A stretch of 64,000 nt of DNA from Falsochrobactrum shanghaiense (GTDB lineage Bacteria; Pseudomonadota; Alphaproteobacteria; Rhizobiales; Rhizobiaceae): NCBI RefSeq assembly GCF_003149535.1, contig NZ_QGDB01000009.1, positions 1-64,000 on the forward strand. The letters are read 5' to 3'. Positions 5,247-31,090 of this stretch are shown one piece after another (position 1 is the first letter of the stretch; the number at the start of each line of letters is the position of its first letter). The notes under the pieces were generated by a model. It ran no database searches and had not been told where the DNA came from. It worked only from the letters and a program-made list of their open reading frames with translations. The position numbers were made by a program, and so were the translations under genes.

Positions 5247-5261
5247 GCAATATCTATGCCA
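5247..5261 (-). promoter_or_regulatory. Sigma-54 promoter (-24/-12) for the dctQMP operon
   Basis: On the minus strand it reads TGGCATAGATATTGC, followed by T. The GG and GC doublets are separated by exactly 10 nt, as sigma-54 promoters require. The predicted start is near 5235, giving a leader of about 50 nt to the GTG of dctQ. One of seven sites with the identical TGGCAT-N5-TTGC form in block 1. Confidence 0.85.
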
Positions 5262-5628
5262 GCGGCCATCAGCTGGACGCAAAATCCCAGGCTTTTTGAT
5301 CAATTGCCGTAAGATTGACGAATCTTTCCGAGAACCTGCCATTGCGCACAGTCTTCGTGTCCGTCGGTCGTATCGTGTAGCAGATAACTTATCCTGAACA
5401 GATAACCGGCTTCGTCTCATGCAGTTATCGGCTACATGGCCATTCTGCATACAGGTGAATGACCTGAGGCTGTGCTGCTTAAAGTAGTTTAGCTTTTGCC
5501 ATAAAAGCGGGAGTTGATGGCTGGTAGGCGCGTAGACATAAAGCGCCACGTTCCATGTCGGATCGAAGCCGGATGAATCTTACTGTCTATTCAAGGTTTG
5601 CAAAGCAAGGATATCCCTCCCATCAGGC
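5262..5628. other. Divergent control region between dctQ and pcaF
   Basis: A 367-bp stretch between two outward-facing sigma-54 promoters, with no convincing gene. It holds a 16-bp inverted repeat AAGATTGACGAATCTT at 5311-5326 and a repeated AGATAAC (near 5383 and 5400). Either could be a binding site for the sigma-54 activator, but neither motif clearly recurs at the other promoters. Short open frames here have no recognisable domain. Confidence 0.5.
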
Positions 5629-5643
5629 TGGCATGTGGTTTGC
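5629..5643 (+). promoter_or_regulatory. Sigma-54 promoter (-24/-12) for the pcaF-MFS operon
   Basis: Reads TGGCATGTGGTTTGC followed by G, with correct GG-N10-GC spacing. The predicted start near 5655 gives a leader of about 85 nt before the ATG at 5740. An in-frame ATG at 5635 lies inside the element and therefore cannot be the translation start if this promoter is used. Confidence 0.85.
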
Positions 5644-5739
5644 GATCAATATCTGTCAATGCGCAGGCTGCGCCGATTCCTCCCCTTACTCGAGGAAGTT
5701 GCGACGGTCGAACAAATGCATGCTGCCCAAGGAGAAGAC

Positions 5740-6945
5740 ATGATTGACGCCTATATCTGCGATTATATCCGTACGCCTATCGGCCGTTACGCGGGCGCAC
5801 TTGCATCCATAAGGGCCGACGATCTCGGCGCGATTCCATTGAAAACGCTTATGGGACGTAATCCCTTGGTTGATTGGGAAGTTGTTGGCGATGTCGTCTA
5901 TGGCTGCGCCAATCAGGCCGGAGAGGACAATCGCAACGTTGCGCGCATGTCGCTTCTGCTCGCCGGATTGCCTGTCTCGGTAACCGGCACGACCATAAAC
6001 CGACTCTGCGGTTCGGGCATGGACGCCGTGATCACTGCCGCCCGCGCCATCCGCACCGGCGAAGCCGAACTGATGATAGCTGGTGGCGTGGAAAGCATGA
6101 GCCGGGCGCCTTTCGTGATGTCGAAGGCAGAAAGTGCCTTTTCCCGCGCAGCGGAAATTCACGACACGACGATTGGCTGGCGCTTCATCAACCCTGCCAT
6201 GAAGGGATTGCACGGCGTCGACTCGATGCCGGAAACCGGTGACAATGTGGCGCTCGACTTTGGTATTTCCCGCGAAGATCAGGACGCTTTCGCCATGCGT
6301 TCGCAAACGAAAGCAGCTGCTGCGCAGGAAAATGGCCGTCTAGCTCGGGAGATCGTCGGCGTCAGTGTGCCGCAGCGCAAGGGCGATCCACTTCTTGTGG
6401 ATCGGGACGAACACCCCCGCGGTACGACACCTGATGCGCTCGCCAAGCTGAAGCCCGTCAACAGGATCGAAGGCGGTACTGTGACGGCAGGCAACGCGTC
6501 GGGCGTCAATGATGGCGCGGCTGCACTTATCATCGCCTCGGAGGCCGCGGCTGCGAAATACGGCCTGACGCCGATCGCACGCTTTCTCGGTGGTGCTACA
6601 GCCGGTGTGCCGCCGCGCGTGATGGGTATAGGTCCAGCGCCCGCATCCCAGAAACTCATGGCGCAACTGGGTATGTCGCAGGACATGTTCGACGTTATTG
6701 AGCTTAACGAGGCCTTTGCATCCCAGGGACTTGCAACGTTGCGCAAGCTCGGAATAGCCGATGACGACCATCGCGTGAATATCAATGGTGGTGCCATTGC
6801 GCTCGGTCATCCGCTTGGCATGTCCGGCGCCCGCATCGCTGGCACAGCAGCGCTGGAAATGTCGTTGCGCAAGGGCAGATATGCGCTCGCCACGATGTGC
6901 ATTGGCGTCGGGCAGGGAATTGCGATGGCGTTGGAACGAGTCTGA
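5740..6945 (+). CDS. pcaF: Beta-ketoadipyl-CoA thiolase-type acetyl-CoA acyltransferase
   Basis: Thiolase of 401 aa that would cleave a 3-oxoacyl-CoA, most likely 3-oxoadipyl-CoA, to succinyl-CoA and acetyl-CoA. The nucleophile is Cys90 in NRLCGSGMDA, the His is in GGAIALGHPLGMSGAR, and the second Cys is in TMCIGVGQG. The N-terminus, with RTPIGRYAGAL, RADDLGAIPLK and YGCANQAGEDNRNVARM, is the signature of the PcaF/PaaJ branch. AAGGAG precedes the ATG at 5740. It heads a rightward operon with an MFS exporter under a sigma-54 promoter. Its presence, with PaaG- and PaaH-like proteins elsewhere in the island, suggests that the pathway ends in a C6 dicarboxylyl-CoA. Confidence 0.88.
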   Translation: MIDAYICDYIRTPIGRYAGALASIRADDLGAIPLKTLMGRNPLVDWEVVGDVVYGCANQAGEDNRNVARMSLLLAGLPVSVTGTTINRLCGSGMDAVITAARAIRTGEAELMIAGGVESMSRAPFVMSKAESAFSRAAEIHDTTIGWRFINPAMKGLHGVDSMPETGDNVALDFGISREDQDAFAMRSQTKAAAAQENGRLAREIVGVSVPQRKGDPLLVDRDEHPRGTTPDALAKLKPVNRIEGGTVTAGNASGVNDGAAALIIASEAAAAKYGLTPIARFLGGATAGVPPRVMGIGPAPASQKLMAQLGMSQDMFDVIELNEAFASQGLATLRKLGIADDDHRVNINGGAIALGHPLGMSGARIAGTAALEMSLRKGRYALATMCIGVGQGIAMALERV

Positions 6946-7021
6946 CCGCAACTGGGCGCGACGACCAATATGGCGCAGGCGCGCGCTTTGATGCGCTAAG
7001 CTACGGACCAACGAGGAAATA

Positions 7022-8272
7022 ATGTCGCGGACTGCATTCGATAACAAGCCCGCTCAGGGTGGCAGGAGCTGCGCAACACAGCCGCCCACAGATGACAAGC
7101 CGTCATCATTGCTTCTGGCAATCCTGGCAGCACTAATGAGCTTTTCTGCACTACCAACAGACAGCTATCTGCCGGCTTTGCCTGAAATCGCCCGATCGCT
7201 GGCATCCCGTGGCGGAAGTGCCGAATTGACCATTTCGACCTTTCTTATAGGATTCAGTCTTGGGCAGTTGGTATGGGGACCGATCGGCGACCGGTATGGC
7301 CGGCGCGGACCCATCGTGATCGGCATTCTTCTGTTTATCGCAGGAACAATCGGATGCGCACTATCGCCATCGATCTGGAGCATCGTGGGATGGCGATTCG
7401 TCCAAGCGATCGGTGCTAGTGCCAGTCAAGTACTGGCCCGCGCCATTGTTCGCGATCTCTATGCGCGGAATCGGTCTGCACAGATTTTCTCAACCCTTTT
7501 GTTGCTGATGGGATTTGCTTCCCTCCTCGGACCGCTCGTCGGCGCGCAAATTATGGCTCTTGCTGGATGGCGTGCTATTTTCTGGGCGGTGGCCGGATTT
7601 GGCCTGATGATGCTGTTCGCCACAACCATGATCCCCGACACACTTCCGCCGGAGCGGCGCAGCAGAGAACCCCTACGATATGCGTTCGCCGGCTATGGAC
7701 TGCTACTGAAGGACGCAAGGCTGATCGGTTTTGCGTTGTCAGGAGGTTTCTTCTTTGCAGGCTCGTTCGCGTTTGTCGCCGGCTCACCCTTTGTCTATAT
7801 TGAATTCTATCATGTGGACCCACGTGATTTCGCCTACCTCTTCGCAGTCAATATTATTGGCCTGATGGCGGCGAATTTTTTGAATGGCCAGCTTCTGAGC
7901 CGCTACGATAGCGACATGTTGCTACGTTTTGGAACCTGCGTCGGCGCCATCGCCGGCGTCGCTCTTGCTATCAACACCTGCTTTGGCTTCGGTGGAATTT
8001 GGGGTGTGGCGCTGCCTTTGTTCATCTATGTTTCGATGACCGGCTTCGTCATAGCCAATTCACTCGCTGGAGCACTGTCGGGATTTCCTACGCAGGCCGG
8101 GGCCGCGTCTGCATTAATTGGCTTGATCCACTATGGATCGGGCATGCTGGGTTCGACGATGCTCGGATGGCTGAAAGATGGCACGCCCTGGCCTATGGGC
8201 ATACTCATCGCCTTTGGTGGGGTTGGTAGTCTGTTCGTCGCCACGATTGCCACTCGCCACCGGCCTGGCTGA
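7022..8272 (+). CDS. MFS transporter, Bcr/CflA drug-efflux type
   Basis: Membrane protein of 416 aa with about 12 predicted helices. The first helix contains ALPTDSYLPALPEIARSL, the Bcr/CflA hallmark, followed by the MFS loop motif GPIGDRYGRRGP between helices 2 and 3 and the RFVQAIGASASQVLARAIVRD segment. It lies 76 bp after pcaF on the same strand, with no obvious terminator between. It could export an excess or toxic pathway intermediate, or import a substrate; direction and ligand are not visible. Confidence 0.88.
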   Translation: MSRTAFDNKPAQGGRSCATQPPTDDKPSSLLLAILAALMSFSALPTDSYLPALPEIARSLASRGGSAELTISTFLIGFSLGQLVWGPIGDRYGRRGPIVIGILLFIAGTIGCALSPSIWSIVGWRFVQAIGASASQVLARAIVRDLYARNRSAQIFSTLLLLMGFASLLGPLVGAQIMALAGWRAIFWAVAGFGLMMLFATTMIPDTLPPERRSREPLRYAFAGYGLLLKDARLIGFALSGGFFFAGSFAFVAGSPFVYIEFYHVDPRDFAYLFAVNIIGLMAANFLNGQLLSRYDSDMLLRFGTCVGAIAGVALAINTCFGFGGIWGVALPLFIYVSMTGFVIANSLAGALSGFPTQAGAASALIGLIHYGSGMLGSTMLGWLKDGTPWPMGILIAFGGVGSLFVATIATRHRPG

Positions 8273-8373: not shown

Positions 8374-9135
8374 CTAAATCGTCGCCAGTCCACCATCGAC
8401 GGGCAGGCAGACGCCTGTAATGTTCCCGGCTTGAGCTGAAGCAAGAAACAGACCCGCATTGGCGATCTCATCGACGGACACGAACTGTCCGAGAGGCATC
8501 TTACCGACGAAATTCTTCTTGTTTTCCTCGAAATCACCCTTGCGCAGCGAAGCTTCCGTCATTTCTGTCCAGACACCCCAGGGTGCAATGGCGTTGACGC
8601 GGATATTATACTTTCCAAGATAGGTAGCGAGATTCCTGACCAGCATGATGATACCGGCCTTGGAAACTGAATAGGCAATGGAACCGAGAGGGGACGGCCG
8701 CATACCTGAAACCGATGCCGTGAAAATCATGCTTCCGCCACCGCTCTTTTTCATGTGAGGAACGACAAACTTGGCGCCGAAGACCGCCGCCTTGAGATTA
8801 ATCGCCATGACACGATCGAAGTCCTGTTCGGTGATTTCCTCAATGTTCTTGATGTTTGAAATGCCGGCATTATGCCAAAAGATATCAATGCCGCCATAGG
8901 TATCAACGGCATGTTGAACCATATTTTCGAGATCCGGCATGGCACTAACGTCAGCTTTGAAGAAAGAGGCCTCGACATCATTCGCACATATCTCGGCGAC
9001 GACCTTGTTACCTTGGTCGGTGTTCACGTCTGCAACCACGACCTTGGAGCCTTCGCTTGCGAAGCGCTTTACAATGCCTTCGCCGATACCCGTTGCACCC
9101 CCGACGATGAGCGTTACCTTGTCTTTTAACTGCAT
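8374..9135 (-). CDS. Short-chain dehydrogenase/reductase
   Basis: Classical SDR of 253 aa. The coenzyme loop is GGATGIG (12-18), Asp36 after the second strand favours NAD(H), and Tyr155 and Lys159 (YSVSK) form the active pair. The usual NNAG is replaced by WHNAG at 87-91, a minor but visible deviation. The C-terminal VDGGLATI is standard. It is the last gene of the leftward group from the acyl-CoA dehydrogenase at 14919, separated from the thioesterase gene by 105 bp that holds a GGAGG-type ribosome site but no clear promoter. It may act as a hydroxyacyl-CoA or alicyclic alcohol dehydrogenase. It converges with the MFS gene across about 100 bp of featureless DNA. Confidence 0.85.
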   Translation of the reverse strand: MQLKDKVTLIVGGATGIGEGIVKRFASEGSKVVVADVNTDQGNKVVAEICANDVEASFFKADVSAMPDLENMVQHAVDTYGGIDIFWHNAGISNIKNIEEITEQDFDRVMAINLKAAVFGAKFVVPHMKKSGGGSMIFTASVSGMRPSPLGSIAYSVSKAGIIMLVRNLATYLGKYNIRVNAIAPWGVWTEMTEASLRKGDFEENKKNFVGKMPLGQFVSVDEIANAGLFLASAQAGNITGVCLPVDGGLATI

Positions 9136-9240
9136 TTTCTTTCGACCTCCTGAAATATGCCGGTCGTGATGACACCGCGGCAGCGACCGATGCTGGTCTG
9201 ATGTTTATTTGTGAAGTATTGGGCCGTATCCTCTGAGTGA

Positions 9241-10083
9241 TTAGGTCGAGAGGTAAGCGCGAACGAATAGTGGCACTGGAACGACACGGCGCTCTTTAAA
9301 ATCAACGATCACTAAAACCTGTTCGACGGATGCGACCGGGCTTCCAAGATGGTCGTAAACGCAGTGCCGCAGCACAAGTGACTTTTCTCCCACTGACGCC
9401 AACCAGGATCGAGAAGAAAGCACATCTCCAGCTTTACACTCCCGATGCCGGGTGATTTTGACCTCGACCCCCATATGCGTGCAGCCGGACACTTTCTTCC
9501 ATTCCGGCGACAAGCCGACGATGTCGCCAAGGATGTGCAGCGACGCTAGAGTGCAGTAGGAGAAGATTTCGTGCATCTGAAGCTGACCTACGTGGTCTAG
9601 TTCATGAGGACGAACTACGCCAAGATTGAGGGGCATCATAGTCCGTGGGTCACACTGACTCGACGACATGCTACTTGGGGCACTGGAGAGCCCACGGGTG
9701 AATGAGGGTAGGACTTCGGCTACCCCAAGAACTGGTACTTTCTCCGTGGAGAACCCAGGCAGGTCAAGCGCGCTGGCACAGATGTGACCATTGCTCCGTA
9801 GCAAGTGCAGAATTCGGCCATTATGCTCTCCGCCCCTAATCACCGCGGAGTCGATCGCGAAGGTCTGGCTGACTCTTAGCTCGCGGTGGAAACGCATATG
9901 ACGCAGGCTAGCCGACGCCGCACCTGGATTGGCTCTCAGAACATCGGCGGCGAGCGCTTCGGAAGCATACTGAAATGCGCGAATGTAAAACGTAAGATTA
10001 AGATGCTCGTTTTCGTCGCACTCCCAGGGCCGCACCAGCCCGCTGTAAGTTTGGCGAGCTCCAGTCTTTTCTAATGTCAACAT
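9241..10083 (-). CDS. Double hot-dog acyl-CoA thioesterase family protein
   Basis: 280 aa with two copies of a thioesterase-like half. The N-terminal half has RPWECDENEHLNLTFYI (about residues 18-34), the D-E-N-E-H-L-N motif of 4-hydroxybenzoyl-CoA-type hot-dog enzymes. The C-terminal half has RPHELDHVGQLQMHEIF, with the related Asp-His-x-Gly pattern. The fold is known from acyl-CoA thioesterases and fatty-acyl hydratases. In this operon it could release free acid from a CoA intermediate and recycle CoA. The substrate is unknown. It starts 28 bp after the DUF35 gene. Confidence 0.7.
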   Translation of the reverse strand: MLTLEKTGARQTYSGLVRPWECDENEHLNLTFYIRAFQYASEALAADVLRANPGAASASLRHMRFHRELRVSQTFAIDSAVIRGGEHNGRILHLLRSNGHICASALDLPGFSTEKVPVLGVAEVLPSFTRGLSSAPSSMSSSQCDPRTMMPLNLGVVRPHELDHVGQLQMHEIFSYCTLASLHILGDIVGLSPEWKKVSGCTHMGVEVKITRHRECKAGDVLSSRSWLASVGEKSLVLRHCVYDHLGSPVASVEQVLVIVDFKERRVVPVPLFVRAYLST

Positions 10084-10111
10084 CTAAGGTCCGCCGTTTG
10101 CTGGCAGGCGG

Positions 10112-10519
10112 CTAAGCCGCCGTAGAGATGCGTCGGAACTGAGGAAGGATGTTTCCTGCATCGTCAGAGGTAAAATCGACCTCGACCTCATCCCCGATTT
10201 GAACGTCCAGTGCGTCACTTCCAACGATGTTGGTTATCATGCGTGGACCTTCAGCGGTAACAATTGCCCCAATGACATAAGGCACCTTTTCCCTGAAGGA
10301 GTTCAACGGCGCTCTTCTAACAGTCGTGAAACTCTCAACGTGTCCACGGCCACTGACGTCGACCCACGATAGCGTGTCCGACCAACATGTCGCACAATGA
10401 TACCGGGGCGGGAACTGGGTCGCGGCGCACTGGTCGCATTGCTGGAAACGCAGCTTACCTTCCCTTGCACCAGCCCAGTATTCGCGGCTGTCGCCGTTCT
10501 CGAGATCACTTGTATTCAT
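10112..10519 (-). CDS. DUF35 zinc-ribbon/OB-fold protein (acyl-CoA-binding partner of a thiolase-like enzyme)
   Basis: 135 aa. The rubredoxin-like zinc ribbon has Cys28, Cys31, Cys42 and Cys45 (CDQC...CATC), followed by an OB-fold with the VPYVIGAIVTAEGPRM segment. DUF35 proteins are known to act with thiolase-like enzymes, for example in the steroid side-chain aldolases that pair Ltp2 with a DUF35 chain. The probable partner here is the Cys-less thiolase-like protein in the divergent operon (15208-16374). I chose the ATG at 10519 because GGGGG precedes it. A GTG at 10591, overlapping the upstream crotonase stop, would add 24 residues not typical of the family. Confidence 0.85.
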   Translation of the reverse strand: MNTSDLENGDSREYWAGAREGKLRFQQCDQCAATQFPPRYHCATCWSDTLSWVDVSGRGHVESFTTVRRAPLNSFREKVPYVIGAIVTAEGPRMITNIVGSDALDVQIGDEVEVDFTSDDAGNILPQFRRISTAA

Positions 10520-10587
10520 CAGACTAACCCCCGGACTATTTCTGCAAACGTGGAAGCAGCCGGGCCGGACCAGCCGCTTCGTGCGAT

Positions 10588-11397
10588 TCACTTCTTGCGA
10601 AGATTGCTCATCAAGTTTGAGAGCATTTCCTTATGTTCCGTGCGTTGAAACAGGTAGTTTTGAGTATAAGCCTCATACGCAAGGACAGAGCCCAAGTCCG
10701 CGTCCGCAGCACGGACAAGAGAAAGCTTGGTTCCGGCGATGGCACGCCGCGGCGCGCCCTCCGCGATCTTCCGCCCGAGTTCTACGGCACGGTCCAGCAA
10801 TTGATCTGCGGGTACCAGATCGAGGAAAAGGCCAGCCTGTTTGCCTTCTTCCGCTTCTACCACAGCGCTCGTAAGCAGCCATTCATTAGCGCGCATCGTT
10901 CCCACGAGCTTCGGCAGGTGATAGGTGCACGCCATGTCCCAAGCACCTAGACCGATGCGACCGAACGCGAAGTGATATTTCGTTTCGGGAACCGCCAGAG
11001 CCAGATCGCAGCACAAGGCCAGAGCGACACCGCCGCCGATTGCAGGACCATTAACGGCCGCGATCACTGGAAGGTCGAGTTCCTTGATCCGCTGAACCAT
11101 CCTGCAGTGGCTACGCACCGCAATAAACTGGTCTTCAAGATCTTCGTGACCTTCTGGCTTTACGAGCGTCCCTAGTTCGGCACCAGAGCAGAAAACGGTT
11201 CCAGCGCCGGTGAGTACCACCGCCCGGATGTCACGGTCTCGTTCGGCTTCATCGAGCGCGGCCAAGAAGGCGTCCGCGAGCGTATGCGTTAAAGGATTAC
11301 GCTTGCGTGGGCGATTGATCGTTACGATCGCGACGCAGTCACGACGCTCGAGAACAACTTCGGGTTCCTGATCATCCGCGACGTGAGGAGCGGCCAT
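10588..11397 (-). CDS. Crotonase-family protein without canonical catalytic glutamates
   Basis: Enoyl-CoA hydratase/isomerase fold, 269 aa. Oxyanion-hole segments are FCSGAELG (69-76) and AIGGGVALAL (119-128). The first Glu of hydratases is replaced by Ala (GGGVALA, residue 125). In the second segment (FAFGRIGLGAWDMACTYHL) no Glu occurs at the usual place either, although Asp154 is close. A simple hydratase reaction is thus unlikely; isomerase, hydrolase or lyase chemistry is possible. It lies between the flavin monooxygenase gene and DUF35 in the leftward operon. The substrate is not recognisable. Confidence 0.78.
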   Translation of the reverse strand: MAAPHVADDQEPEVVLERRDCVAIVTINRPRKRNPLTHTLADAFLAALDEAERDRDIRAVVLTGAGTVFCSGAELGTLVKPEGHEDLEDQFIAVRSHCRMVQRIKELDLPVIAAVNGPAIGGGVALALCCDLALAVPETKYHFAFGRIGLGAWDMACTYHLPKLVGTMRANEWLLTSAVVEAEEGKQAGLFLDLVPADQLLDRAVELGRKIAEGAPRRAIAGTKLSLVRAADADLGSVLAYEAYTQNYLFQRTEHKEMLSNLMSNLRKK

Positions 11398-11450
11398 ATC
11401 TATACCTCATATTTTTCAGACAGTTATTGAACGATGTTGGCGATAATTGG

Positions 11451-12422
11451 TTAGAGCATTCTTGGAAGGCGCTCCTTGATGATCGAGCGCGCCTGCACCA
11501 CGATCCGGTCGATGAGTTCCTTTACAGTGGGGATGTCGTCGATCAGTCCCACGACCTGGCCGCAAGACCACACCCCGGACTCCACCTCGCCGTTCTTCAT
11601 GATCTTCGGGTAGACACCGGCGACTTCCTTGGCGACATCGGAGAATGTGATCTCTGAACCGAGGCGCTTCTCAGTCTCGATAACTCGTTCGACAGCCTCG
11701 TTCACCAACACGCGCTCGGTATTGCGCAACGGACGAAGAATAAGCCTGGTGTCACGCTCGGTGGCCGCCACTATTGCATCCTTCACGTTCTGATGGATGG
11801 GCGCTTCTTTGGTCGCCATGAAACGCGTACCCATGTTCATGCCGTCTGCGCCCAGTGAAAGAGCAGCGACTAAGGATGCTCCATCCACCATCCCGCCTGA
11901 CGCGATAAATGGCACCTTTAGCTTTTGTGCGCAGAGTGGAAGCAAAATCAGGTTCGTGACGTCGTCCTCGCCCGGATGCCCGGCGCATTCGAAACCATCC
12001 ATACTGATGGCGTCGCATCCCAGCCGTTCGGCCGTAAGCGCATGTCTGATCGACGTGCATTTATGGATAACAACGATCCCAGCTTCCTTGAAAGTAGCCA
12101 TCCATTCCTTTGGATTGTTTCCAGCGGTCTCCACGATTTTGACGCCGCCTTCGATGATCGCCTTCACGTAGCCAGGATAATCCGGTGGCCTTGTGGAAGG
12201 GAGAAACGCCAGGTTGACGGCGAACGGCTTGTCGGTCATCCCGCGGCAACGTTCAATTTCAGCCCGCAACGCCTCAGGCGTCGGCTGCGTGAGTGCCGTG
12301 ATGATACCTAAACCTCCAGCGTTCGAGACCGCTGAAGCGAGTTCGGCAAACCCGACATGATGCATGCCGCCCTGGACAATCGGATATTTGATGCCGAAAA
12401 GTTCTGTAATTCGAGTTTGCAT
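11451..12422 (-). CDS. Nitronate monooxygenase/2-nitropropane dioxygenase family flavoprotein
   Basis: FMN-dependent TIM-barrel protein of 323 aa. Family features are PIVQGGMHHVGFAELASAV near the N-terminus, AGGLGII, the active-site GFECAGHPGEDD segment with its His, the phosphate-binding PFIASGGMVDGASLVAAL, and GADGMNMGTRFMAT. Relatives include nitronate monooxygenases and FabK-like enoyl reductases. In an operon of acyl-CoA enzymes a reductase or dehydrogenase acting on an unsaturated acyl-CoA seems at least as likely as nitronate oxidation. The ATG at 12422 has AGGGGAGG in front. Confidence 0.8.
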   Translation of the reverse strand: MQTRITELFGIKYPIVQGGMHHVGFAELASAVSNAGGLGIITALTQPTPEALRAEIERCRGMTDKPFAVNLAFLPSTRPPDYPGYVKAIIEGGVKIVETAGNNPKEWMATFKEAGIVVIHKCTSIRHALTAERLGCDAISMDGFECAGHPGEDDVTNLILLPLCAQKLKVPFIASGGMVDGASLVAALSLGADGMNMGTRFMATKEAPIHQNVKDAIVAATERDTRLILRPLRNTERVLVNEAVERVIETEKRLGSEITFSDVAKEVAGVYPKIMKNGEVESGVWSCGQVVGLIDDIPTVKELIDRIVVQARSIIKERLPRML

Positions 12423-12521
12423 CGTTGGGCCTCCCCTAATTGCGTTGCCTAACTGTAGCTCCGCATTTTGCATGCCATCGTCAGTTCGCGGAGACTCTTT
12501 CAGAGCGCCATCCGCTGATTT

Positions 12522-12848
12522 TCACACACCTGTCTTCGACCCGACGCGTTCGCTGATCCAGATCAGTGGTTTGATATTCGTGAATTTGGGAATGTCGGCG
12601 CTTATCGTCGGAAGATGTGGGAAAAGCCCTTCGGTCAGATCTTCCATCGTTGCACAGGTGACAATCGCGTGTGCAACGAATGCCGGCGCGGATCCTGAGC
12701 GCATTCCTGAGACACCCTTGTCCAAGGTCACCGAGTGACAGCGAGAACCCATTAAACCCAGCACAAGAGGTATGTGTCTTTCGACATAGTAGTCATAGTC
12801 AAAGTGCCCTTCCTCCAAGGGAGGGTACATGACGTGGAAATTGAACAT
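12522..12848 (-). CDS. EthD family ferredoxin-like small protein
   Basis: Small alpha/beta (dimeric ferredoxin-like) protein of 108 aa. Its opening FHVMYPPLEEGHFDYDYYVERHIPLVLGLMG matches the EthD pattern of a first strand followed by an F-x-x-Y-Y-x-x-x-H-x-P helix. EthD proteins occur in ether- and steroid-degrading operons. Their role is often unknown, though some related dimeric barrels are isomerases or monooxygenases. It lies between the crotonase gene at 12891 and the flavoprotein gene at 11451 and is surely co-transcribed with them. Confidence 0.75.
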   Translation of the reverse strand: MFNFHVMYPPLEEGHFDYDYYVERHIPLVLGLMGSRCHSVTLDKGVSGMRSGSAPAFVAHAIVTCATMEDLTEGLFPHLPTISADIPKFTNIKPLIWISERVGSKTGV

Positions 12849-12890
12849 GGTTCTTCTCCAATTGGCTGCAACGCTATCGACGCGAGGCCC

Positions 12891-13676: not shown

Positions 13677-13725
13677 GTCTAATCCTGGTCAGAATGTGAT
13701 TTGTGAGAGGGAAAGCGGACCGAGA

Positions 13726-16374: not shown

Positions 16375-16391
16375 ATACTCAGGAGAGATAC

Positions 16392-16853: not shown

Positions 16854-16887
16854 GCCTCGATGCGGCCGCCAAACTAGGGAGCCAATA

Positions 16888-17658: not shown

Positions 17659-17659
17659 A

Positions 17660-21744: not shown

Positions 21745-21759
21745 TCGGCGGTCTCAGAG

Positions 21760-24247: not shown

Positions 24248-24284
24248 CCACAGTTCCTCCGATACCGAACTTTGCCGGTGTTAG

Positions 24285-25817
24285 CTACCAACCGAACTCG
24301 TCCGAAACCTTTTCACGTTCACTCTGCCTAGCGACCACCGCCGCGCGCGCAGGAGCAAATCCTGGCGCACCCGTCATTTCGTAGATGGCCTTCGATATAT
24401 GGAAGTGCCTAGCAAGACCGCCTCTCACGACGCGTTCGAGCGGGCCGTCAGGGTATCCGAGTCCTTGGCAGCAGGTCCGATCCATATCCTCCGCTGAAGC
24501 TAAGCCTTCATCAAGAAAACGCAGGGCATCATTATATTTGGGGCGAACAAGCCTATCGACGATCCTACCCGGCTGATCTGCGCAGATCACAACATCAAAA
24601 CCGGCGACCTCGAAGATCGAACGCGCAGCTTCGAGGGCAACTGGATCGGTGTTCTGCCTGTAGACTATTTCCACCAGTTTTGAAGGCGCATCATTGCCGT
24701 TGCGGTAGCGCGCGAAGCCCACGACGTTCGAGGTTTCAGGTGCGAGTCCCTCTCCGGTGTGAAATCCGAGGCATTCCGTATCGAGCTCTACCAGAACCGC
24801 CTTCTTTTCAGGAGCGGGTCGGTATAAACCGCCAAGCTGCACATCCACCTTACCATCTGGAGATGCGTCAGACACAAACGCATCCGCCTCGGAGAACGAT
24901 CGGCTTTTGCCAGCCCTTGCGATCGTGTACGAGGGAGCCGTCTCTGCCTTTGGTCTGCTTTCAGCCCCAAGCAAGCCCCGGCCCGTTTTATTGCCAAGGC
25001 GCCCGGCTGCCACAAGCCGTCGAAGCAACGGCGGCACCGACGCCCGCTTGTCGAGAGTAATAGGGTAGAAAGCCTCACCCAAACGAACCTGCGTATCCAA
25101 ACCGATAAGGTCGAGTAGCGTGCACGGTCCCATCTTGTACCCGAGGGCCGATTTGATCGCGAGGTCGATGTCCTCCGCAGAAGCCAAGCCCGCCTCGATC
25201 GCGCGGATAACATCGTTGTTGAACGGCACCAGAAGGGCATTGAGGATGAACCCCGGCTTGTCTTGAGTTTCGACGGGCGCTTGTCCAACCGATCGGGTCC
25301 ATTCCCACGCTGCATTGAAGGTCTCGTCGGAGGTGTTGATCCCACGTGACATTTCGATCAGCTTCATCAACTGGGCTGGCAAGCAGAAATGCATCCCGAC
25401 CACCTTGTCTTCCCGCCCACAACCGCTCGCAATTTCAGTGATGGAGAGGGTCGACGTATTGGAGGCAAAGATCGTGCCGTCCTTGCATATGCCGTTAAGC
25501 TTGGCGAAAAGCCCCTGTTTGACCTCAAGGTTTTCAAAGATGGCTTCGATAACAACATCGCAGTCGGCAAGATCAGCTAGATCCGTCGAATCCTTCATTC
25601 GAGCGAGTGCCGCATCTGCATCTGCTGAAGACAGCTTGCCCCGTTCGACCGCCTTACGAAAGAACCCTTCCGCTGCGGCACGAGCTTTGGCCAGTCCCTC
25701 CGGATTGGTGTCGAAGCAAACTGTTTCTGCTCCGCCACGTGCCGCCACGATAGCTATCCCGGCTCCCATTGTACCTCCAGCGCCGCAGACACCGATTTTT
25801 TTAATTGTGATGGTCAT
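24285..25817 (-). CDS. 3-hydroxyacyl-CoA dehydrogenase (long, double C-domain)
   Basis: 510 aa. The Rossmann loop reads GAGGTMGAG (11-19), one Gly longer than usual. The catalytic region has SNTSTLSITEIA and KVVGMHFCLPAQLMKLIEM, the latter with CLPA where relatives have NPPP/NPA. The first C-terminal domain is near 190-290. After a divergent linker a second one follows (DRLVRPKYNDALRFLDEGLASAEDMD, about 435-500). It differs from the PaaH-like paralogue four kilobases away, so the two probably serve different hydroxyacyl-CoAs. The ATG at 25817 overlaps the stop of the upstream acyl-CoA dehydrogenase. Confidence 0.87.
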   Translation of the reverse strand: MTITIKKIGVCGAGGTMGAGIAIVAARGGAETVCFDTNPEGLAKARAAAEGFFRKAVERGKLSSADADAALARMKDSTDLADLADCDVVIEAIFENLEVKQGLFAKLNGICKDGTIFASNTSTLSITEIASGCGREDKVVGMHFCLPAQLMKLIEMSRGINTSDETFNAAWEWTRSVGQAPVETQDKPGFILNALLVPFNNDVIRAIEAGLASAEDIDLAIKSALGYKMGPCTLLDLIGLDTQVRLGEAFYPITLDKRASVPPLLRRLVAAGRLGNKTGRGLLGAESRPKAETAPSYTIARAGKSRSFSEADAFVSDASPDGKVDVQLGGLYRPAPEKKAVLVELDTECLGFHTGEGLAPETSNVVGFARYRNGNDAPSKLVEIVYRQNTDPVALEAARSIFEVAGFDVVICADQPGRIVDRLVRPKYNDALRFLDEGLASAEDMDRTCCQGLGYPDGPLERVVRGGLARHFHISKAIYEMTGAPGFAPARAAVVARQSEREKVSDEFGW

Positions 25818-27004
25818 TTGCTCTTGAAACTCCTGCCGATGAGCTGGCGATGAACCTGGTTCGTGCCCTCCCAAATTTGTGTGATCTTAGCGTCGCGCAT
25901 TAGTCGTTCGGCGCGATAGTCGCGGCAGTAGCCGTAGCCCCCGTGGAGCTGCACGCATTCCGTGGCCATCTTCATCGCTAGGTCTGTCGCACGAAGTTTT
26001 GCGACAGAGGCTTCCATGCCGAAATCAGGAACACCCGACGCGATGAGGTCCGCGACATAGTCGATCCAGTTCTCAACCATGACCAGTTCCGACGCCAAAT
26101 CTGCTAGCGTGAACTGGTTTCCCTGGAAATCGAGGATCTTTTTACCGCCTTGAGCGCGCTCGTTGCCGTAGGCGACCATATCCTTGAAGGCGGCACGCGC
26201 GATCCCGCGCGCATGTGCTGCCACTGATGGCCGCGAGCGGTTCAGCGACGCAAGCAGGATGGAAAGACCATCTCCGGGTCTGCCAATAAGATTGGCGTAG
26301 GGCACCCGGACATTGTCGAAAGCGAGCGCGCAGGTCGACGACCCGTTGTGTCCCATCTTTCGTTCCTTTGACACAACCTTGAAGCCTTCTGTTCCCTTTT
26401 CCAGAATTAGGACCGAGATCGCAGCCTTGGGATCGTCGATACCCGACCATTTTCCGAAAAGCAGGATTAGATCAGCGACGTCACCGTTGGTGATGAAAAC
26501 TTTGGAGCCATTGATGACGATGTCATCGCCATCCTGAGTGAAGCGCGTCTTCATTCCCGTCGCGTCGGAACCCGCGTTCGGCTCGGTAATGGCGAGCGCT
26601 CCTAACGCACCCTCAACGATACGGGGCAGCAGTCGGGCACGTTGTTCGTCGTTGCCGAACTCGATTAGCGGCTTGATCCCGTGGAAATTAGTCGCGTATA
26701 TGATACCCGTCGACGCGCAAGCCTCGGAAATGATCGTGACGATCTCAAGGTAAAGTTTGAAGGACATTTCAGCGCCGCCGAACTGCTCCGGGACGAAGAT
26801 GCTATTGAGGCCAAGTTCATTAATCGCCTGGATATTCTCCCAAGGAAACTGGCCGGCTTCATCCACATGCGCGGCTCGAGGAGCGATAACTTCATCGACC
26901 ATCCTCTGTACCTGATCTATGATCAGCCGCTCATCGTCATTCCACTGTCGCTGACTGCACACTCTTTCGAGAATATTCATAATACTCATCCAATAGTGGG
27001 TCAT
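25814..27004 (-). CDS. Acyl-CoA dehydrogenase
   Basis: 396 aa from the upstream ATG; ATGs at 26989 and 26980 are alternatives, since no strong ribosome site decides. All ACAD domains are present: ALAITEPNAGSDATGMKT, NGSKVFITNGDVADLILLF, MGHNGSSTCALAFDNVRVP, the QLHGGYGYCRDYRAERLMRDAKI region, and the catalytic Glu in QIWEGTNQVHRQLIGR at the C-terminus. It fits the butyryl/isovaleryl-CoA-like group. In the BadI-containing operon it is the candidate for first oxidation of the activated ring acid (AliB-like role). Electrons would go to ETF and the ETF-QO at the left edge. Confidence 0.9.
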   Translation of the reverse strand: MTHYWMSIMNILERVCSQRQWNDDERLIIDQVQRMVDEVIAPRAAHVDEAGQFPWENIQAINELGLNSIFVPEQFGGAEMSFKLYLEIVTIISEACASTGIIYATNFHGIKPLIEFGNDEQRARLLPRIVEGALGALAITEPNAGSDATGMKTRFTQDGDDIVINGSKVFITNGDVADLILLFGKWSGIDDPKAAISVLILEKGTEGFKVVSKERKMGHNGSSTCALAFDNVRVPYANLIGRPGDGLSILLASLNRSRPSVAAHARGIARAAFKDMVAYGNERAQGGKKILDFQGNQFTLADLASELVMVENWIDYVADLIASGVPDFGMEASVAKLRATDLAMKMATECVQLHGGYGYCRDYRAERLMRDAKITQIWEGTNQVHRQLIGRSFKSK

Positions 27005-27049
27005 ACCGAAGGAAACTTTCGCTCCCGCCAGAGTCCACGTTAGTTGCCG

Positions 27050-28666
27050 TTACACCTTGGTTGCCTGATATCTCACCGGCTGCGGCTGCAGATCGCCGCG
27101 TTTGACCATCTCCACCAGTTCCCGCTTCAAGATTTTTCCGCTGGGCGTGAGTGGCAGAGAGCCCACCGAAATGAACCATTCGGGCATGTCGAACTTGGAA
27201 AGCCCCTCGGCAGCAAGGTGGTTCAACAACTCCGGACCTTCGACGCCACCGATGACTGCCAAGCAGACGCGCTCGCCCAACCGTTCGTCGGACACAGGAA
27301 ATGCCGCCGCCTTGGTTACTGAAGAGTGTGTCAGCGCAGCCGCCTCGATATGCGAAGGATAGATGTTGTGGCCGCCGCGGATGATGATATCCTTGACCCG
27401 TCCTTCGATCCGAAGGTTGCCGTACCGGTCGATGGAACCAAGATCTCCGGACATCAAATAGCCGTACCGGTTGAAGGTCTTCTCAGTCGCTTCCTGGTTT
27501 GCAAAGTAACCGAGCATCATCGCGGCACCGCGGCCTCCAATCTCGCCAGTCATCCCCTGCGCAACCTCCCGATCAGAGTTTTCTTGGTCCCATATCTTGA
27601 TTTCATAGCCAGGGCCGCCTCGACCGCATGTTGAAATCCAGACCTCCTTGGGATCGCTCGGATGGGTGTACTGATGTGACGAACATTCGGTCATGCCGTA
27701 GATATTCTGGGGTGCAATACCTTGATCGACAAATGCCTTGGCAACGACCTCGGGAATTGGAGCGCCAGCCATATAGAATGTCTTGACGGACCCAATCCTC
27801 GGTAGCCCGCGTTTCGTCTGGTCAGCGAGGATGTCCATTGCATGGGTGGGGACGCCTAGAACGTAGGTCGCCTTATTGTCCACGATCCAATCGAGGCGCG
27901 AAACTCCTTGTGGTGGATCATCCGTCACCATCGTGCCGCCGCACACTAGCCATTGGCTGATCGCCACCCATGCGATGTGGTGAGACAGAGGACTCAATGA
28001 AAGGATAACGGAACTTCGGTCCAGCCCCCAATCGCGTGCAAGATCACGTGCGTTGGCGAGAAGTGTATTACTTGAATGCATAACGCACTTGGGTCGGCCG
28101 GTAGTTCCCGACGTGAAGGCGAGATACGCGACACTGTCGGGGTTGCCATGCGGATCGCGCATAGGATAAGTGATATGGCGGGGGAAGTTATCAGGCGTAT
28201 AGATCTTTTTTAGGAAGGGGAGCCGTTTGACCATTCCCTCAAAGTCGTGATCTGCCCGGTCGGCACCCCATCCATCCTCCGTAATCAGTGCCTTGGCTTG
28301 CAATTCGGTTAGAAGATCAATGATCTCTTTGCAGGTATAGCTTCGGTGAAGTGACGGATTGCAAGCTATACCCTCACGCGAACATGCAAGGAATGCGATA
28401 ACCGCTTCCAAGCGGTTCGACATCCAAATGGAAATACGGTCGCCAGCAGCCAACTCCCGATTTACGAAGTCATCGGCCAGAGCATCCACGCGAGCCTTGA
28501 GCGATCGCCAATCGAGGCTTTGCCGGCCGTCACGCAACGCCGCGGCGTCTGACGAGTACTGGGCGTGCTCAGCCAGCAGCGAGTAGAAGGTATCGTTTCG
28601 CCAGAGCCCGCAGTCATAGTAGCTCTGACTATTTCGAGGATCATGAAGTGTCAAAAACGGTCGCAT
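27050..28666 (-). CDS. AMP-forming acyl-CoA ligase
   Basis: 538 aa member of the adenylating superfamily. The P-loop is AFTSGTTGRPK, motif II is YGMTEC, the hinge is GDLGSIDRYGNLRIEGRVKDIIIRGGHNIYP, and the catalytic Lys lies in TPSGKILKRE near the C-terminus. The overall style resembles cyclohexanecarboxylate-CoA ligase-type enzymes, but substrate cannot be assigned. The ATG at 28666, preceded by AAGGCGG, is 10 bp after the crotonase stop. The frame is open further upstream, but that would overlap the crotonase gene. It would activate the free acid at the start of the ring pathway. Confidence 0.88.
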   Translation of the reverse strand: MRPFLTLHDPRNSQSYYDCGLWRNDTFYSLLAEHAQYSSDAAALRDGRQSLDWRSLKARVDALADDFVNRELAAGDRISIWMSNRLEAVIAFLACSREGIACNPSLHRSYTCKEIIDLLTELQAKALITEDGWGADRADHDFEGMVKRLPFLKKIYTPDNFPRHITYPMRDPHGNPDSVAYLAFTSGTTGRPKCVMHSSNTLLANARDLARDWGLDRSSVILSLSPLSHHIAWVAISQWLVCGGTMVTDDPPQGVSRLDWIVDNKATYVLGVPTHAMDILADQTKRGLPRIGSVKTFYMAGAPIPEVVAKAFVDQGIAPQNIYGMTECSSHQYTHPSDPKEVWISTCGRGGPGYEIKIWDQENSDREVAQGMTGEIGGRGAAMMLGYFANQEATEKTFNRYGYLMSGDLGSIDRYGNLRIEGRVKDIIIRGGHNIYPSHIEAAALTHSSVTKAAAFPVSDERLGERVCLAVIGGVEGPELLNHLAAEGLSKFDMPEWFISVGSLPLTPSGKILKRELVEMVKRGDLQPQPVRYQATKV

Positions 28667-28676
28667 ATAAGCCGCC

Positions 28677-29456
28677 TTAGTTGCCGAAGCGGGTTGGATC
28701 AGGCTTGCGCCGCTCGGCGAAGCTCTCACCCAGTTCTTTCGCTTCATCGGTGCCGATGTATTGACTAAGCAAAAGATCATGTGTGACGCGAGAAAGTCCG
28801 CTCACTCCGCCGTGGCGCGCGTTGAAAGCCCCCTTGATCGAGGCGAGCGCGAATGCGCCGCGGTCGGCAATTTCCAATGCGAACTCACGCGTCTTCTCTG
28901 CGAGTTGATGGTCGGGCACAACCCGGTTTATCAATCCGATTTCCTTGGCGTAAGCTGCGGTCATCTTTGAATTGGTGTACCAGATTTCCTTAGCGCGCTT
29001 CTTTCCGACCAGGTCCTCGAGATACCAAGTTCCGTAGCCACCGTCGAAGGAGCCGACCATCGGGCCGACCTGCCGGAAGATTGCGCTCTCCTTGGCAATG
29101 GTGACGTCGCAAACGACCTGAAGCACGTTGCCGCCACCAACAGCCATGCCATTGATGCTCGCGATCACCGGCTTTTGCAGACGATCAATGGCATCGTACA
29201 TTTCCAACGTCGGAAGTACGCCGGCATAGAGCTTTGTCTTCTCCATCCCATCCTTGCGACCGCCAATGCAGAAAAACCTGTCTCCGGCACCGGTCAAGAC
29301 CACGACGCGGGTGCGTGTTTCACGTCGGATGCCCTCAATGCAGTCACGAATTTCGTGGCACATCGTTTCCGTGAACATGTTGCCGTCTTCCGGCCGGTTC
29401 ATTGTGATAGTGCCAACCGGACCGTCTTCGACGTAGATGATCTCTTTGTAGGTCAT
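28677..29456 (-). CDS. MenB/BadI-type crotonase, probable 2-ketocyclohexanecarboxyl-CoA hydrolase-like ring-cleavage enzyme
   Basis: 259 aa. The segment AIFRQVGPMVGSFDGGYGTWYL (126-146) followed by VGKKRAKEIWY is the signature of the MenB/BadI branch. BadI opens 2-ketocyclohexanecarboxyl-CoA to pimeloyl-CoA by a reverse Dieckmann reaction; MenB makes dihydroxynaphthoyl-CoA. Asp138 is in the conserved GS-x-D position. The neighbours (ligase, acyl-CoA dehydrogenase, hydroxyacyl-CoA dehydrogenases) and the absence of other men genes argue for hydrolytic ring opening. GAGGAAA precedes the ATG. The variation around residues 66-80 (RKDGMEKTKLY) suggests a substrate different from that of BadI. Confidence 0.8.
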   Translation of the reverse strand: MTYKEIIYVEDGPVGTITMNRPEDGNMFTETMCHEIRDCIEGIRRETRTRVVVLTGAGDRFFCIGGRKDGMEKTKLYAGVLPTLEMYDAIDRLQKPVIASINGMAVGGGNVLQVVCDVTIAKESAIFRQVGPMVGSFDGGYGTWYLEDLVGKKRAKEIWYTNSKMTAAYAKEIGLINRVVPDHQLAEKTREFALEIADRGAFALASIKGAFNARHGGVSGLSRVTHDLLLSQYIGTDEAKELGESFAERRKPDPTRFGN

Positions 29457-29482
29457 GATTTCCTCGTTTCGTACTTTAAGGC

Positions 29483-30718
29483 TTAGCGTTTGACGGCTGG
29501 CGCCAGCGCGCTCAAAACCTCTTGAGTGTGCTCGCCCAATCGTGGAGGAGCAGATGCCGGAATGCTGAACTTGTCGTCGATTTGAATCCCTAGACCGATC
29601 TGCGGAACGACACGGCCCTGACCATCGATGAGGCCGTAGAACATTCCACGGTCCTGTAGCGCCTGATCGGCAACAACCTCGTCAACTGCGTTAATCGGAC
29701 CGGCTGGCACACGCGCTGAGGCAAATATCTTTAGCCATTCAGCACGCGTACGCTTCAATAGGAGATTCTGAATGTGCTTCACGATCTTCGACCGGACGAT
29801 GCGGCGCGCGGCGTTACTCTCAAAACCCTTCTGATGAGCAAATTCCGGATCGCCTACGGCTTCCCAAAAGCGCTTCCAGATACGATCCGATCCAATCCCC
29901 AGCGTAAGGGGCCGGTCCGCTGTTTCGAACGCTTGGTAAATTGCGATCACGCTGTCCGTCCCACCGGATCTCTTGGGAACTTCGCCCGAGCCGAGGTAGG
30001 AGGAGATGCGACACGACAGGAACCTCGTCATGCTCTCAACGAGGCTGATGTCGATCTTTCGTCCCTGTCCGGATTTCTGCTTGTCGAACAACGCCGCCAT
30101 CGTGGCCATAGCCGCATCTTGGCCGGCCAGCATATCAGCAGCAGGAGCCCCAACCTTCTGGGGAGAGCCCCCTTCTTCGCCGGTGATATCCATGATCCCG
30201 GAGTATCCCTCCGCAATCAGATCATAGCAGGTGAGTTCCGCACGCTCTCCAGACAAGCCGAAGCCGGTTACGGAAACGAAGATAATATCCGGTTTCTGTT
30301 CACGAAGGCTCTCATAATCAAGCTTTAGCTTCTTCTGCACGCTCAACGGCTGGTTCGTAACCACCACATCCGCGCTTGCAATGAGACGTTGCAAGTCGCT
30401 GAATCCTTCCTTGCTGAGAAGGTCTAGCACTACACTCTTTTTGTTTCGGTTTACTGCGGTGAACCAAAGCGCTTGCCCATCCAGAAAGGGAGGTCCCCAG
30501 TGCCGTGCATCGTCACCATCAGGTCGCTCAACTTTGATGACTTCGGCACCAAAATCCGATAGCAGCATCGTCGCGTATGGGCCGGCAACCGACGTGGTGA
30601 GATCAAGCACGCGAACTCCGGCAAGCATCGAAAAAGACGCCGTGGCATTCAATACAGGTAAAGCTTGGTACGGAAGGCCCGGAGGCGGTAGAGCGGAGTG
30701 TGCTGCCTGTCGGCTCAT
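29483..30718 (-). CDS. CaiB/BaiF family (class III) CoA-transferase
   Basis: 411 aa. Core motifs are GVRVLDLTTSVAGPYATMLLSDFGAEVIKVE (35-64), VTGFGLSG, and the catalytic Asp195 in APAADML, which forms a glutamyl/aspartyl-CoA thioester in the family. It would move CoA between a CoA ester and the incoming acid, an ATP-free alternative to the ligase downstream. The ATG at 30718 has GAGGG at good distance and lies about 22 nt after the predicted sigma-54 start. An internal Met31 would fit the family core equally well. First gene of the seven-gene leftward operon. Confidence 0.88.
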   Translation of the reverse strand: MSRQAAHSALPPPGLPYQALPVLNATASFSMLAGVRVLDLTTSVAGPYATMLLSDFGAEVIKVERPDGDDARHWGPPFLDGQALWFTAVNRNKKSVVLDLLSKEGFSDLQRLIASADVVVTNQPLSVQKKLKLDYESLREQKPDIIFVSVTGFGLSGERAELTCYDLIAEGYSGIMDITGEEGGSPQKVGAPAADMLAGQDAAMATMAALFDKQKSGQGRKIDISLVESMTRFLSCRISSYLGSGEVPKRSGGTDSVIAIYQAFETADRPLTLGIGSDRIWKRFWEAVGDPEFAHQKGFESNAARRIVRSKIVKHIQNLLLKRTRAEWLKIFASARVPAGPINAVDEVVADQALQDRGMFYGLIDGQGRVVPQIGLGIQIDDKFSIPASAPPRLGEHTQEVLSALAPAVKR

Positions 30719-30752
30719 CGTGAAAACCCTCGTTGCGATTGCTTTCCACTTC

Positions 30753-30767
30753 GCAAAAGCGATGCCA
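30753..30767 (-). promoter_or_regulatory. Sigma-54 promoter for the CoA-transferase/BadI operon
   Basis: The minus strand reads TGGCATCGCTTTTGC followed by G, with correct GG-N10-GC spacing. Predicted start near 30741 and a short leader to the ATG at 30718. Confidence 0.85.
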
Positions 30768-31075
30768 GCCTCTTAGGACACGCCAGATTTGATGGCCGCA
30801 AACCCTTCGAGGTCGTCCAGGAACACGAAAGTGTCGGCTGGCCACCGCGAACATTGCTCTCTCACGCACTATCTATCGCAGCGGTTGTTGTAAAAGGTGA
30901 GTTGATATCCTGCACTTGCGAAATTCAAAATCTCGTGCTGTGTGTCCCGAACGACTTCGTTCGGACAGCCATGTGTCCATGGCGAGAACACTGCAGAGTT
31001 CAACAGTTTGACGAACCAATGATTGAGGACGAGATCGCCACTATCGAGAGAGTCTTTTTCGAACTGCTGCACCGT
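30768..31075. other. Divergent control region between the CoA-transferase and alcohol dehydrogenase operons
   Basis: 308 bp between two outward-facing sigma-54 promoters with no credible gene. It contains the strongest inverted repeat of the island, at 30943-30967: arms CCGAACGA and TCGTTCGG around CT, with flanks TGTC and ACA extending the symmetry with one unpaired base. It lies about 110 bp from the right promoter and 175 bp from the left one, usual distances for an enhancer site of a sigma-54 activator. Confidence 0.55.
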
Positions 31076-31090
31076 TGGCATGATCATTGC
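31076..31090 (+). promoter_or_regulatory. Sigma-54 promoter for the alcohol dehydrogenase operon
   Basis: TGGCATGATCATTGC followed by G, with correct GG-N10-GC spacing. Predicted start near 31102, about 70 nt before the ATG at 31171. Confidence 0.85.

What the first reader, a model, noticed from the sequence alone, without database searches (positions are those of the whole stretch)
5247..31090. A self-contained sigma-54 regulon: seven identical-type promoters, a dedicated activator and an island-borne rpoN
Seven sites of exact form TGGCAT-N5-TTGC lie at 5247(-), 5629(+), 15036(-), 15100(+), 20190(+), 30753(-) and 31076(+). Each stands in front of an operon start at 20-105 nt leader distance, and together they cover every divergent operon pair of block 1. 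The activator and rpoN genes sit between them. Sigma-54 control of single catabolic operons is known (for example xyl and dmp). An entire acyl-CoA island of about 30 genes with its own rpoN and own activator is, as far as I know, not a described arrangement. Seen: promoters and genes. Inferred: that the local activator and RpoN act on all of them.
Basis: partly seen in the sequence, partly recalled or inferred. Interest (0 to 1): 0.9.

Follow-up and report, generated by a model that had tools for sequence, protein, structure and literature searches.

The report
Catabolic island carrying its own sigma-54
A block of about 33 bacterial genes for breaking down an unidentified acid carries its own transcription sigma factor (sigma-54), its own activator and matching promoters before nearly every operon, and related blocks occur on plasmids and in genomes of other bacteria, so it looks like a metabolic package that brings part of its own transcription machinery.

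Summary
All seven TGGCAT-N5-TTGC sites are at the stated places (shuffle mean 0.22; none of 100 reached 7). Each precedes an operon with a predicted leader of 23-105 nt; together they cover 32 genes, rpoN included; only the activator lacks one. The genome has 37 TGGCAY-N5-TTGC sites: 7 lie in this 26 kb, and 24 of the other 30 lie inside reading frames.

Comparison supports the regulon reading. Island RpoNs form one clade, apart from chromosomal RpoN and rhizobial symbiotic RpoN2. More distant activators sit beside similar operons without rpoN, so rpoN looks added.

The novelty claim is too strong: the Mesorhizobium loti symbiosis island already has its own rpoN, nifA and promoters.

New: a catabolic sigma-54 lineage with a changed -12 helix (SRV to S/CRA) and G at -11 in 33 of 53 sites. 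Altered promoter specificity is plausible, not shown.

The parts
245..5184 (-). Operon A: DctQ, DctM, DctP (TRAP transporter), SDR, enoyl-CoA hydratase (260-nt gap before the last gene, so that gene may be separate)
   Evidence: Pfam; start at 5184 (GTG after AGGAGATTGAGAAA)
5247..5261 (-). sigma-54 -24/-12 site TGGCATAGATATTGC, leader 51 nt
5629..5643 (+). sigma-54 site TGGCATGTGGTTTGC, leader 85 nt
5740..8272 (+). Operon B: 3-oxoadipyl-CoA thiolase (PcaF, above NCBIfam cut-off) and Bcr/CflA-type MFS transporter (above cut-off)
8374..14919 (-). Operon C: acyl-CoA dehydrogenase, enoyl-CoA hydratase, EthD-like, nitronate-monooxygenase family, enoyl-CoA hydratase, ChsH2-type OB-fold protein, 4HBT_2 thioesterase-like, SDR
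15036..15050 (-). sigma-54 site TGGCATGGAACTTGC, leader 105 nt
15100..15114 (+). sigma-54 site TGGCATTGCTCTTGC, leader 82 nt
15208..18364 (+). Operon D: thiolase-like protein, MaoC hydratase, enoyl-CoA hydratase, SDR
18391..20058 (-). sigma-54 activator (bEBP): PAS, AAA+ with ESELFGYEAGSFTGA loop, Fis-type HTH; start codon uncertain (database copy is 511 aa)
20190..20204 (+). sigma-54 site TGGCATAATCCTTGC before rpoN, leader 71 nt; -11 base is A
20287..21744 (+). island rpoN (sigma-54), 485 aa, 39% identical to the chromosomal RpoN; HTH reads HESTVSRA
21804..30718 (-). Operon F: class III CoA-transferase, MenB/BadI-like hydratase, AMP-forming CoA ligase, acyl-CoA dehydrogenase, 3-hydroxyacyl-CoA dehydrogenase, quinone-oxidoreductase-like, second 3-hydroxyacyl-CoA dehydrogenase
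30753..30767 (-). sigma-54 site TGGCATCGCTTTTGC, leader 23 nt
31076..31090 (+). sigma-54 site TGGCATGATCATTGC, leader 69 nt
31171..37118 (+). Operon G: zinc alcohol dehydrogenase, aldehyde dehydrogenase, CoA ligase, lactonase-like metallo-hydrolase, SDR

Best explanation
A patchily distributed, probably horizontally acquired acyl-CoA catabolic island with its own sigma-54 switch. The activator (PAS plus AAA+ plus Fis HTH) senses an unknown pathway compound and drives sigma-54 RNA polymerase at seven -24/-12 promoters. One of these makes the island's own RpoN, so induction feeds forward: chromosomal or basal RpoN starts it, then island RpoN raises output from the six catabolic operons. The enzymes (transporter, CoA ligases, CoA-transferase, MenB/BadI-like hydratase, beta-oxidation set, 3-oxoadipyl-CoA thiolase) suggest uptake, CoA activation, possible ring opening and beta-oxidation of a cyclic or dicarboxylic acid. 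Shown: the sites, their placement, the gene families, co-inheritance of rpoN and activator, recurrence in other islands. Inferred: that this RpoN and this activator act on all seven, the autoregulation, the transfer, the substrate.
For: Sites exact, promoter-placed and clustered. Other islands: pP73A and pPABY4 show 13 and 9 strict sites in about 66 and 50 kb, each before an annotated gene; G676 has 12 of its 45 genome-wide sites in 40 kb and G734 12 of 49 in 43 kb of the island contig. Island proteins with a match of 40% identity or more over at least 60% of length: G676 22, G734 15, pP73A 19, pPABY4 12 of 33. A strict site precedes rpoN in 4 of 5 islands (Salipiger has none). RpoN tree of 81 rows: 14 of 15 activator-linked rows in one 28-row clade, support 100/98. 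Activator tree of 25 rows: the 17 rpoN-linked rows form one clade, 100/100, the 8 others lie outside. Distances of 13 pairs correlate, r = 0.70, 0 of 5000 permutations reached it. None of 34 same-genus genomes shows a close copy of the island RpoN (best listed about 43%, a few genomes incomplete). Precedent for host RpoN starting such a loop: the M. loti prxS-rpoN2 promoter keeps activity in an rpoN2 mutant (PMC3538637, passage).
Against: No expression, binding or start-site data. Chromosomal RpoN is present and, by inference, serves the activator family where no local rpoN exists. RpoN is among the less conserved shared proteins (43-46% between the window and the other islands, while core enzymes reach 70-89%), which could mean weak constraint. 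No clear shared activator-binding motif. In G676 6 of 12 sites, and in the first 40 kb of G734 4 of 7, fall inside mechanically called frames, though several of these stand right before genes found by homology. One rpoN (Salipiger) lacks a strict site. The correlation partly reflects shared descent of whole islands; activators of 62% identity or more with unknown linkage were not in the tree. Both named plasmids are typed non-mobilizable. Operon limits are by gene spacing only.
Confidence: 0.75

Rival explanations
1. The promoters and the activator work with the chromosomal RpoN; the island rpoN is redundant, a dosage booster or a passenger.
For: Activators 47-56% identical sit beside similar CoA-transferase/ligase operons with sigma-54 sites but no rpoN in the 37 kb read, and G546, G588, G489 and G226 have only one rpoN in the whole genome. 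Both RpoNs share ARRTVAKYR. The island RpoN is poorly conserved between islands (43-46%).
Against: The island rpoN has an open frame in the five islands read, keeps its own clade and travels with one activator clade; its recognition helix has a fixed change (A in 28 of 28, V in 46 of 50 others); -11 is G in 33 of 53 sites.
Confidence: 0.25
2. Orthogonal system: island RpoN and chromosomal RpoN read different promoters, set by the -11 base and the changed -12 helix, as reported for RpoN1/RpoN2 of Cereibacter sphaeroides. (This sharpens the best explanation and overlaps with it.)
For: -11: G 33, T 12, A 8, C 0 of 53, against a TTGC-next-base background of G 0.32, C 0.42 (binomial p 5e-6); 7 of 21 G in islands without rpoN (Fisher p 0.038); 12 of 37 with 16 M. 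loti promoters added (p 0.0097). The changed residues align with E. coli-type positions 382 and 384, beside R383 (the role of R383 is recalled). -11 specificity in C. sphaeroides: PMC11999139, passages.
Against: Salipiger sites have G in only 3 of 9, and G489, without local rpoN, has G in 3 of 3; rpoN's own promoter here has A at -11; p values are modest, and some counted sites in both groups may not be promoters (two of the four Aminobacter sites lie inside genes).
Confidence: 0.35
3. Chance or composition: the seven sites are not promoters.
For: The reversed pattern occurs 13 times in the genome, the true pattern 37 times, so stray matches exist.
Against: Placement before every operon, shuffles, clustering in four other islands, no C at -11 in 53 sites.
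Confidence: 0.03

Closest known systems
Symbiosis island ICEMlSymR7A of Mesorhizobium loti (rpoN2, nifA1, nifA2)
   Same: Island with its own rpoN, its own activators, 16 candidate -24/-12 promoters and a sigma-54 promoter before the rpoN operon (PMC3538637, passages).
   Different: Nitrogen fixation genes and NifA; the two rhizobial symbiotic plasmid RpoN2 proteins that I placed (R. etli, R. tropici) fall among chromosomal RpoNs, not in the island clade.
Cereibacter (Rhodobacter) sphaeroides RpoN paralogues with cognate activators NifA, FleQ/FleT, AprX
   Same: Each studied RpoN works with its own activator; the -11 base contributes to specificity (PMC11999139, passages; Poggio 2006 is cited there, not read).
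   Different: Nif, flagellar and XrpA targets, not a catabolic island; AprX has a REC domain, here PAS. The C. sphaeroides RpoNs were not placed in my tree.
Sigma-54 control of catabolic and beta-oxidation genes (xyl, dmp recalled; beta-oxidation enzymes in Clostridia and Bacilli, PMC12316311, passages)
   Same: Activator plus -24/-12 promoter before catabolic genes.
   Different: No island-borne rpoN named in the passages read; here rpoN is on the island and is itself a target.
Castellaniella defragrans monoterpene island
   Same: Island of acyl-CoA and ring-opening (BadI-like) genes (PMC4109377, passages); an activator listed under C. defragrans is 62% identical.
   Different: The passages read name no island rpoN; I did not compare enzymes or the activator's neighbourhood.

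Membership tests
Sigma-54 (RpoN) | Activator-interacting, core-binding and DNA-binding domains; RpoN box | tested here: met
   PF00309, PF04963, PF04552, ARRTVAKYR; TIGR02395 409 bits, cut-off 277
Bacterial enhancer-binding protein | AAA+ sigma-54 interaction domain with GAFTGA loop, C-terminal HTH | tested here: met
   PF00158, PF25601, PF02954; the loop reads GSFTGA, as in 113 of the 120 listed proteins
Sigma-54 regulon island with own rpoN and activator (as ICEMlSym) | Own rpoN, own activator, promoters before island operons and before rpoN | tested here: met
Sigma-54 regulon island with own rpoN and activator (as ICEMlSym) | Transcription depends on island rpoN and activator | not testable with these tools
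   needs mutants
Rhizobial symbiotic RpoN2 | Groups with R. etli/R. tropici symbiotic RpoN2 | tested here: not met
   separate clades
C. sphaeroides-type specialised RpoN | -11 base separates promoter sets | tested here: inconclusive
   G at -11 in 33 of 53, against 7 of 21 and 5 of 16
BadI-type alicyclic ring-opening pathway | Family-level match of the ring hydrolase | tested here: inconclusive
   28677-29456 matches badI at 205 bits, under the 467.6 cut-off; menB and PRK07396 also under their cut-offs

The most novel reading that the evidence does not exclude
A transferable, orthogonal sigma-54 system: a distinct RpoN lineage with an altered -12 recognition helix (SRV to S/CRA) that reads TGGCAY-N5-TTGCG promoters poorly used by chromosomal RpoN, paired with its own activator clade, so that a catabolic island brings its own enhancer-dependent transcription machinery to new hosts. 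In 2 of 4 islands (here and G676) rpoN's own promoter keeps -11 A, so that the host RpoN could start the loop.
Probability: 0.33. Interest if true: 0.78.

Novelty: new variant of a known kind. Interest (0 to 1): 0.62.

Why it matters
Sigma factors are usually host property that accessory genes borrow. A co-inherited rpoN-activator pair kept with catabolic genes in different alphaproteobacterial families (Roseobacteraceae and the host's family, probably Rhizobiaceae) would be a second, non-symbiotic case of an island bringing its own sigma-54. Its paired promoters make a natural test of how RpoN paralogues separate their targets: the -11 base and the residue beside R383.

Tried and rejected
Chance origin of the sites: rejected. 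TGGCAT (T at -21) as the mark of the island sigma: rejected, since T is 7 of 7 here but 18 of 53 over five islands. A GSFTGA loop as the mark of rpoN-linked activators: rejected, 113 of the 120 listed proteins have it. A shared upstream activator motif: in 53 upstream regions two overlapping 6-mer dyads occur in 3 regions, 20 shuffles reach 2; shorter dyads do not exceed shuffles; not convincing. A changed RpoN box: no. Placement with the rhizobial symbiotic RpoN2: rejected. A close plasmid copy: none holds 80% of window 1-25000 or 44000-64000 (25-44 kb not searched). Genome contigs gave three distant RpoNs of 27-30% identity.

Rows dropped: P0013, whose contig-length match (2776 bp) is too short for both genes and which fell outside the clade, was left out; P0026 and P0031, sister to the 28-row clade, were left out; one of two C. 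indicus activators was left out. The RpoN tree used 60 of the 120 listed RpoNs. Same-length pairing is a proxy that works only within two capped lists: G734's activator contig length (100315, P0235) has no RpoN partner in the list although its rpoN exists. Linkage of about 100 of the 120 listed activators is thus unknown. That activators of about 62% identity or more go with a local rpoN rests on 4 loci found by activator search (C. indicus, Salipiger, G676, G734), 4 of 4 with rpoN; the 7 examined at 56% or less (Aminobacter, Achromobacter, Cupriavidus, G546, G588, G489, G226) showed none.
Full report
Observation. A pattern search finds exactly the seven sites named; none of 100 shuffles reaches this number. 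No exact TGGCAC-N5-TTGC occurs in the window. Sequence reading and gene families give seven transcription units from 245 to 37118: operons of 5, 2, 8, 4, 1, 7 and 5 genes, 32 in all, each with a site and a predicted leader of 23-105 nt before its first start codon. The single gene without one is the activator. rpoN is one of the seven targets. In the whole genome there are 37 TGGCAY-N5-TTGC sites, 7 here; the reversed-pattern control gives 13. Of the 30 others 24 lie within mechanically called frames, 6 are intergenic and 3 of those 6 have a gene start nearby. Of the 86-kb contig, 64-86 kb has none.

Two RpoNs. The genome has two rpoN genes. One is chromosomal, between frames that by my reading look like lptB and hpf. 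The island copy is 39% identical to it. None of 34 same-genus genomes shows a close copy of the island RpoN, so the island was probably acquired.

Relatives. In the protein database RpoN and activator hits have longest contigs of identical length in 14 cases, the window's own included, among them Mesorhizobium sp. A556, Celeribacter indicus and Celeribacter sp. PS-C1; I drop one of the 14 (2776 bp, too short). Plasmids pP73A of C. indicus and pPABY4 of Salipiger abyssi carry activator and rpoN divergently side by side within acyl-CoA and TRAP transporter genes; both plasmids are typed non-mobilizable. Strict sites: 13 in about 66 kb of pP73A and 9 in about 50 kb of pPABY4, all before annotated genes on the same strand, leaders 25-232 nt. 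A family-level search with the Mesorhizobium activator P0125 gave 6 of 394 genomes, the own genome included; G676 and G734 (63% identity) have a second rpoN on the same contig, G546, G588 and G489 (50-53%) have one rpoN each. G676 has 12 of 45 sites in 40 kb and G734 12 of 49 in 43 kb; mechanical frame calling puts 6 of the 12 in G676 and 4 of the 7 in the first 40 kb of G734 inside frames. Matches of 40% identity or more, over at least 60% of length, were found for 22, 15, 19 and 12 of 33 island proteins in G676, G734, pP73A and pPABY4; the BadI-like hydratase is 75-89% identical in the first three, the thiolase-like protein 77-81% in all four, RpoN only 43-46%. Salipiger shows no match of that level for operon F in the 50 kb read. 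A class-level search gave 2 of 385 genomes, the own one and G226 (49%, one rpoN). Aminobacter, Achromobacter and Cupriavidus plasmids have a related activator (47-56%) beside similar operons with sites but no rpoN in the 37 kb read.

Trees (midpoint-rooted). In an 81-row RpoN tree 14 of 15 activator-linked rows fall in a 28-row clade (100/98), apart from chromosomal RpoNs and from R. etli and R. tropici symbiotic RpoN2. In a 25-row activator tree the 17 rpoN-linked rows form one clade (100/100) and the 8 without rpoN lie outside; intermediate activators of unknown linkage were not included. Distances of 13 pairs correlate (r 0.70, 0 of 5000 permutations). One joint origin of the pair is the simplest reading.

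Specificity hint. Between the 28 clade rows and 50 others, six positions differ by my criterion; two lie in the -12 helix: HESTVSRV becomes HESTV(C/S)RA, with A in 28 of 28 against V in 46 of 50 (A in 4), and C in 20 of 28 against S in 50 of 50. The window's own RpoN has S and A. By alignment these are E. coli-type positions 382 and 384 (allowing for three extra residues of that chain), beside R383, which I recall as the -12 contact. G676 and G734 show the same contrast within one genome. In 53 strict sites of five rpoN-bearing islands -11 is G 33, T 12, A 8, C 0; in 21 sites of six stretches without rpoN it is A 7, G 7, T 5, C 2; in 16 M. loti promoters it is G 5 by my count from Table 1, where the quoted consensus is TGGCACG-N4-TTGCW. 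Fisher p is 0.038 for the first comparison and 0.0097 with M. loti added. Against it: Salipiger has G in 3 of 9, and G489, without local rpoN, in 3 of 3. The -11 position is reported to matter for RpoN1/RpoN2 of C. sphaeroides (PMC11999139, passages).

Function. Best guess: uptake and CoA-dependent breakdown of a cyclic or dicarboxylic acid. Basis: PcaF-type thiolase above cut-off, MenB/BadI-like hydratase below cut-off, acyl-CoA dehydrogenases nearest to glutaryl-, acryloyl- and cyclohexanecarbonyl-type models, all below cut-off. The substrate is not determined.

Precedent. The M. loti symbiosis island is the same kind of arrangement for nitrogen fixation (PMC3538637, passages); there the prxS-rpoN2 promoter keeps part of its activity without rpoN2, as the feed-forward model needs. 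C. sphaeroides pairs RpoNs with activators (PMC11999139, passages). Sigma-54 control of beta-oxidation enzymes is reported for Clostridia and Bacilli (PMC12316311, passages). I found no report of an acyl-CoA island with its own rpoN (open-licence papers only). I therefore call it a new variant of a known kind.

Noticed in passing
window 12463-12477 (-): A looser -24/-12-like sequence, TGGCATGCAAAATGC, at the start of the nitronate-monooxygenase-family gene inside operon C.
   Followed up: no
window 28677-29456 (-): MenB/BadI-like hydratase in operon F, a possible ring-opening enzyme; below family cut-offs but 75-89% identical in three other islands.
   Followed up: partly
window 35465-36238 (+): Lactonase-like metallo-hydrolase (nearest AHL lactonase models, below cut-off) as fourth gene of operon G; pP73A has a gene annotated N-acyl homoserine lactonase family too, though no match passed the limits.
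   Followed up: no
G004:C57:31724-33073 and G026:C2:1834928-1836274: Further second rpoN genes in same-genus genomes, about 40% identical to the island RpoN and of unknown context.
   Followed up: no
L072, L073, L074: The activator family beside a recurring hydratase, CoA ligase, acyl-CoA dehydrogenase operon in Aminobacter, Achromobacter and Cupriavidus plasmids, without rpoN in the stretch read.
   Followed up: partly
window 38280-39317 (+): Long reading frame in a stretch of higher G+C (about 0.61) with no Pfam match.
   Followed up: no
window 15036-15114; L066 32760-32819; L069 16308-16376: Very tight divergent sigma-54 site pair (starts 45-64 nt apart) between an acyl-CoA dehydrogenase gene and the thiolase-like gene (annotated hypothetical in the plasmids), kept in three islands.
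   Followed up: partly
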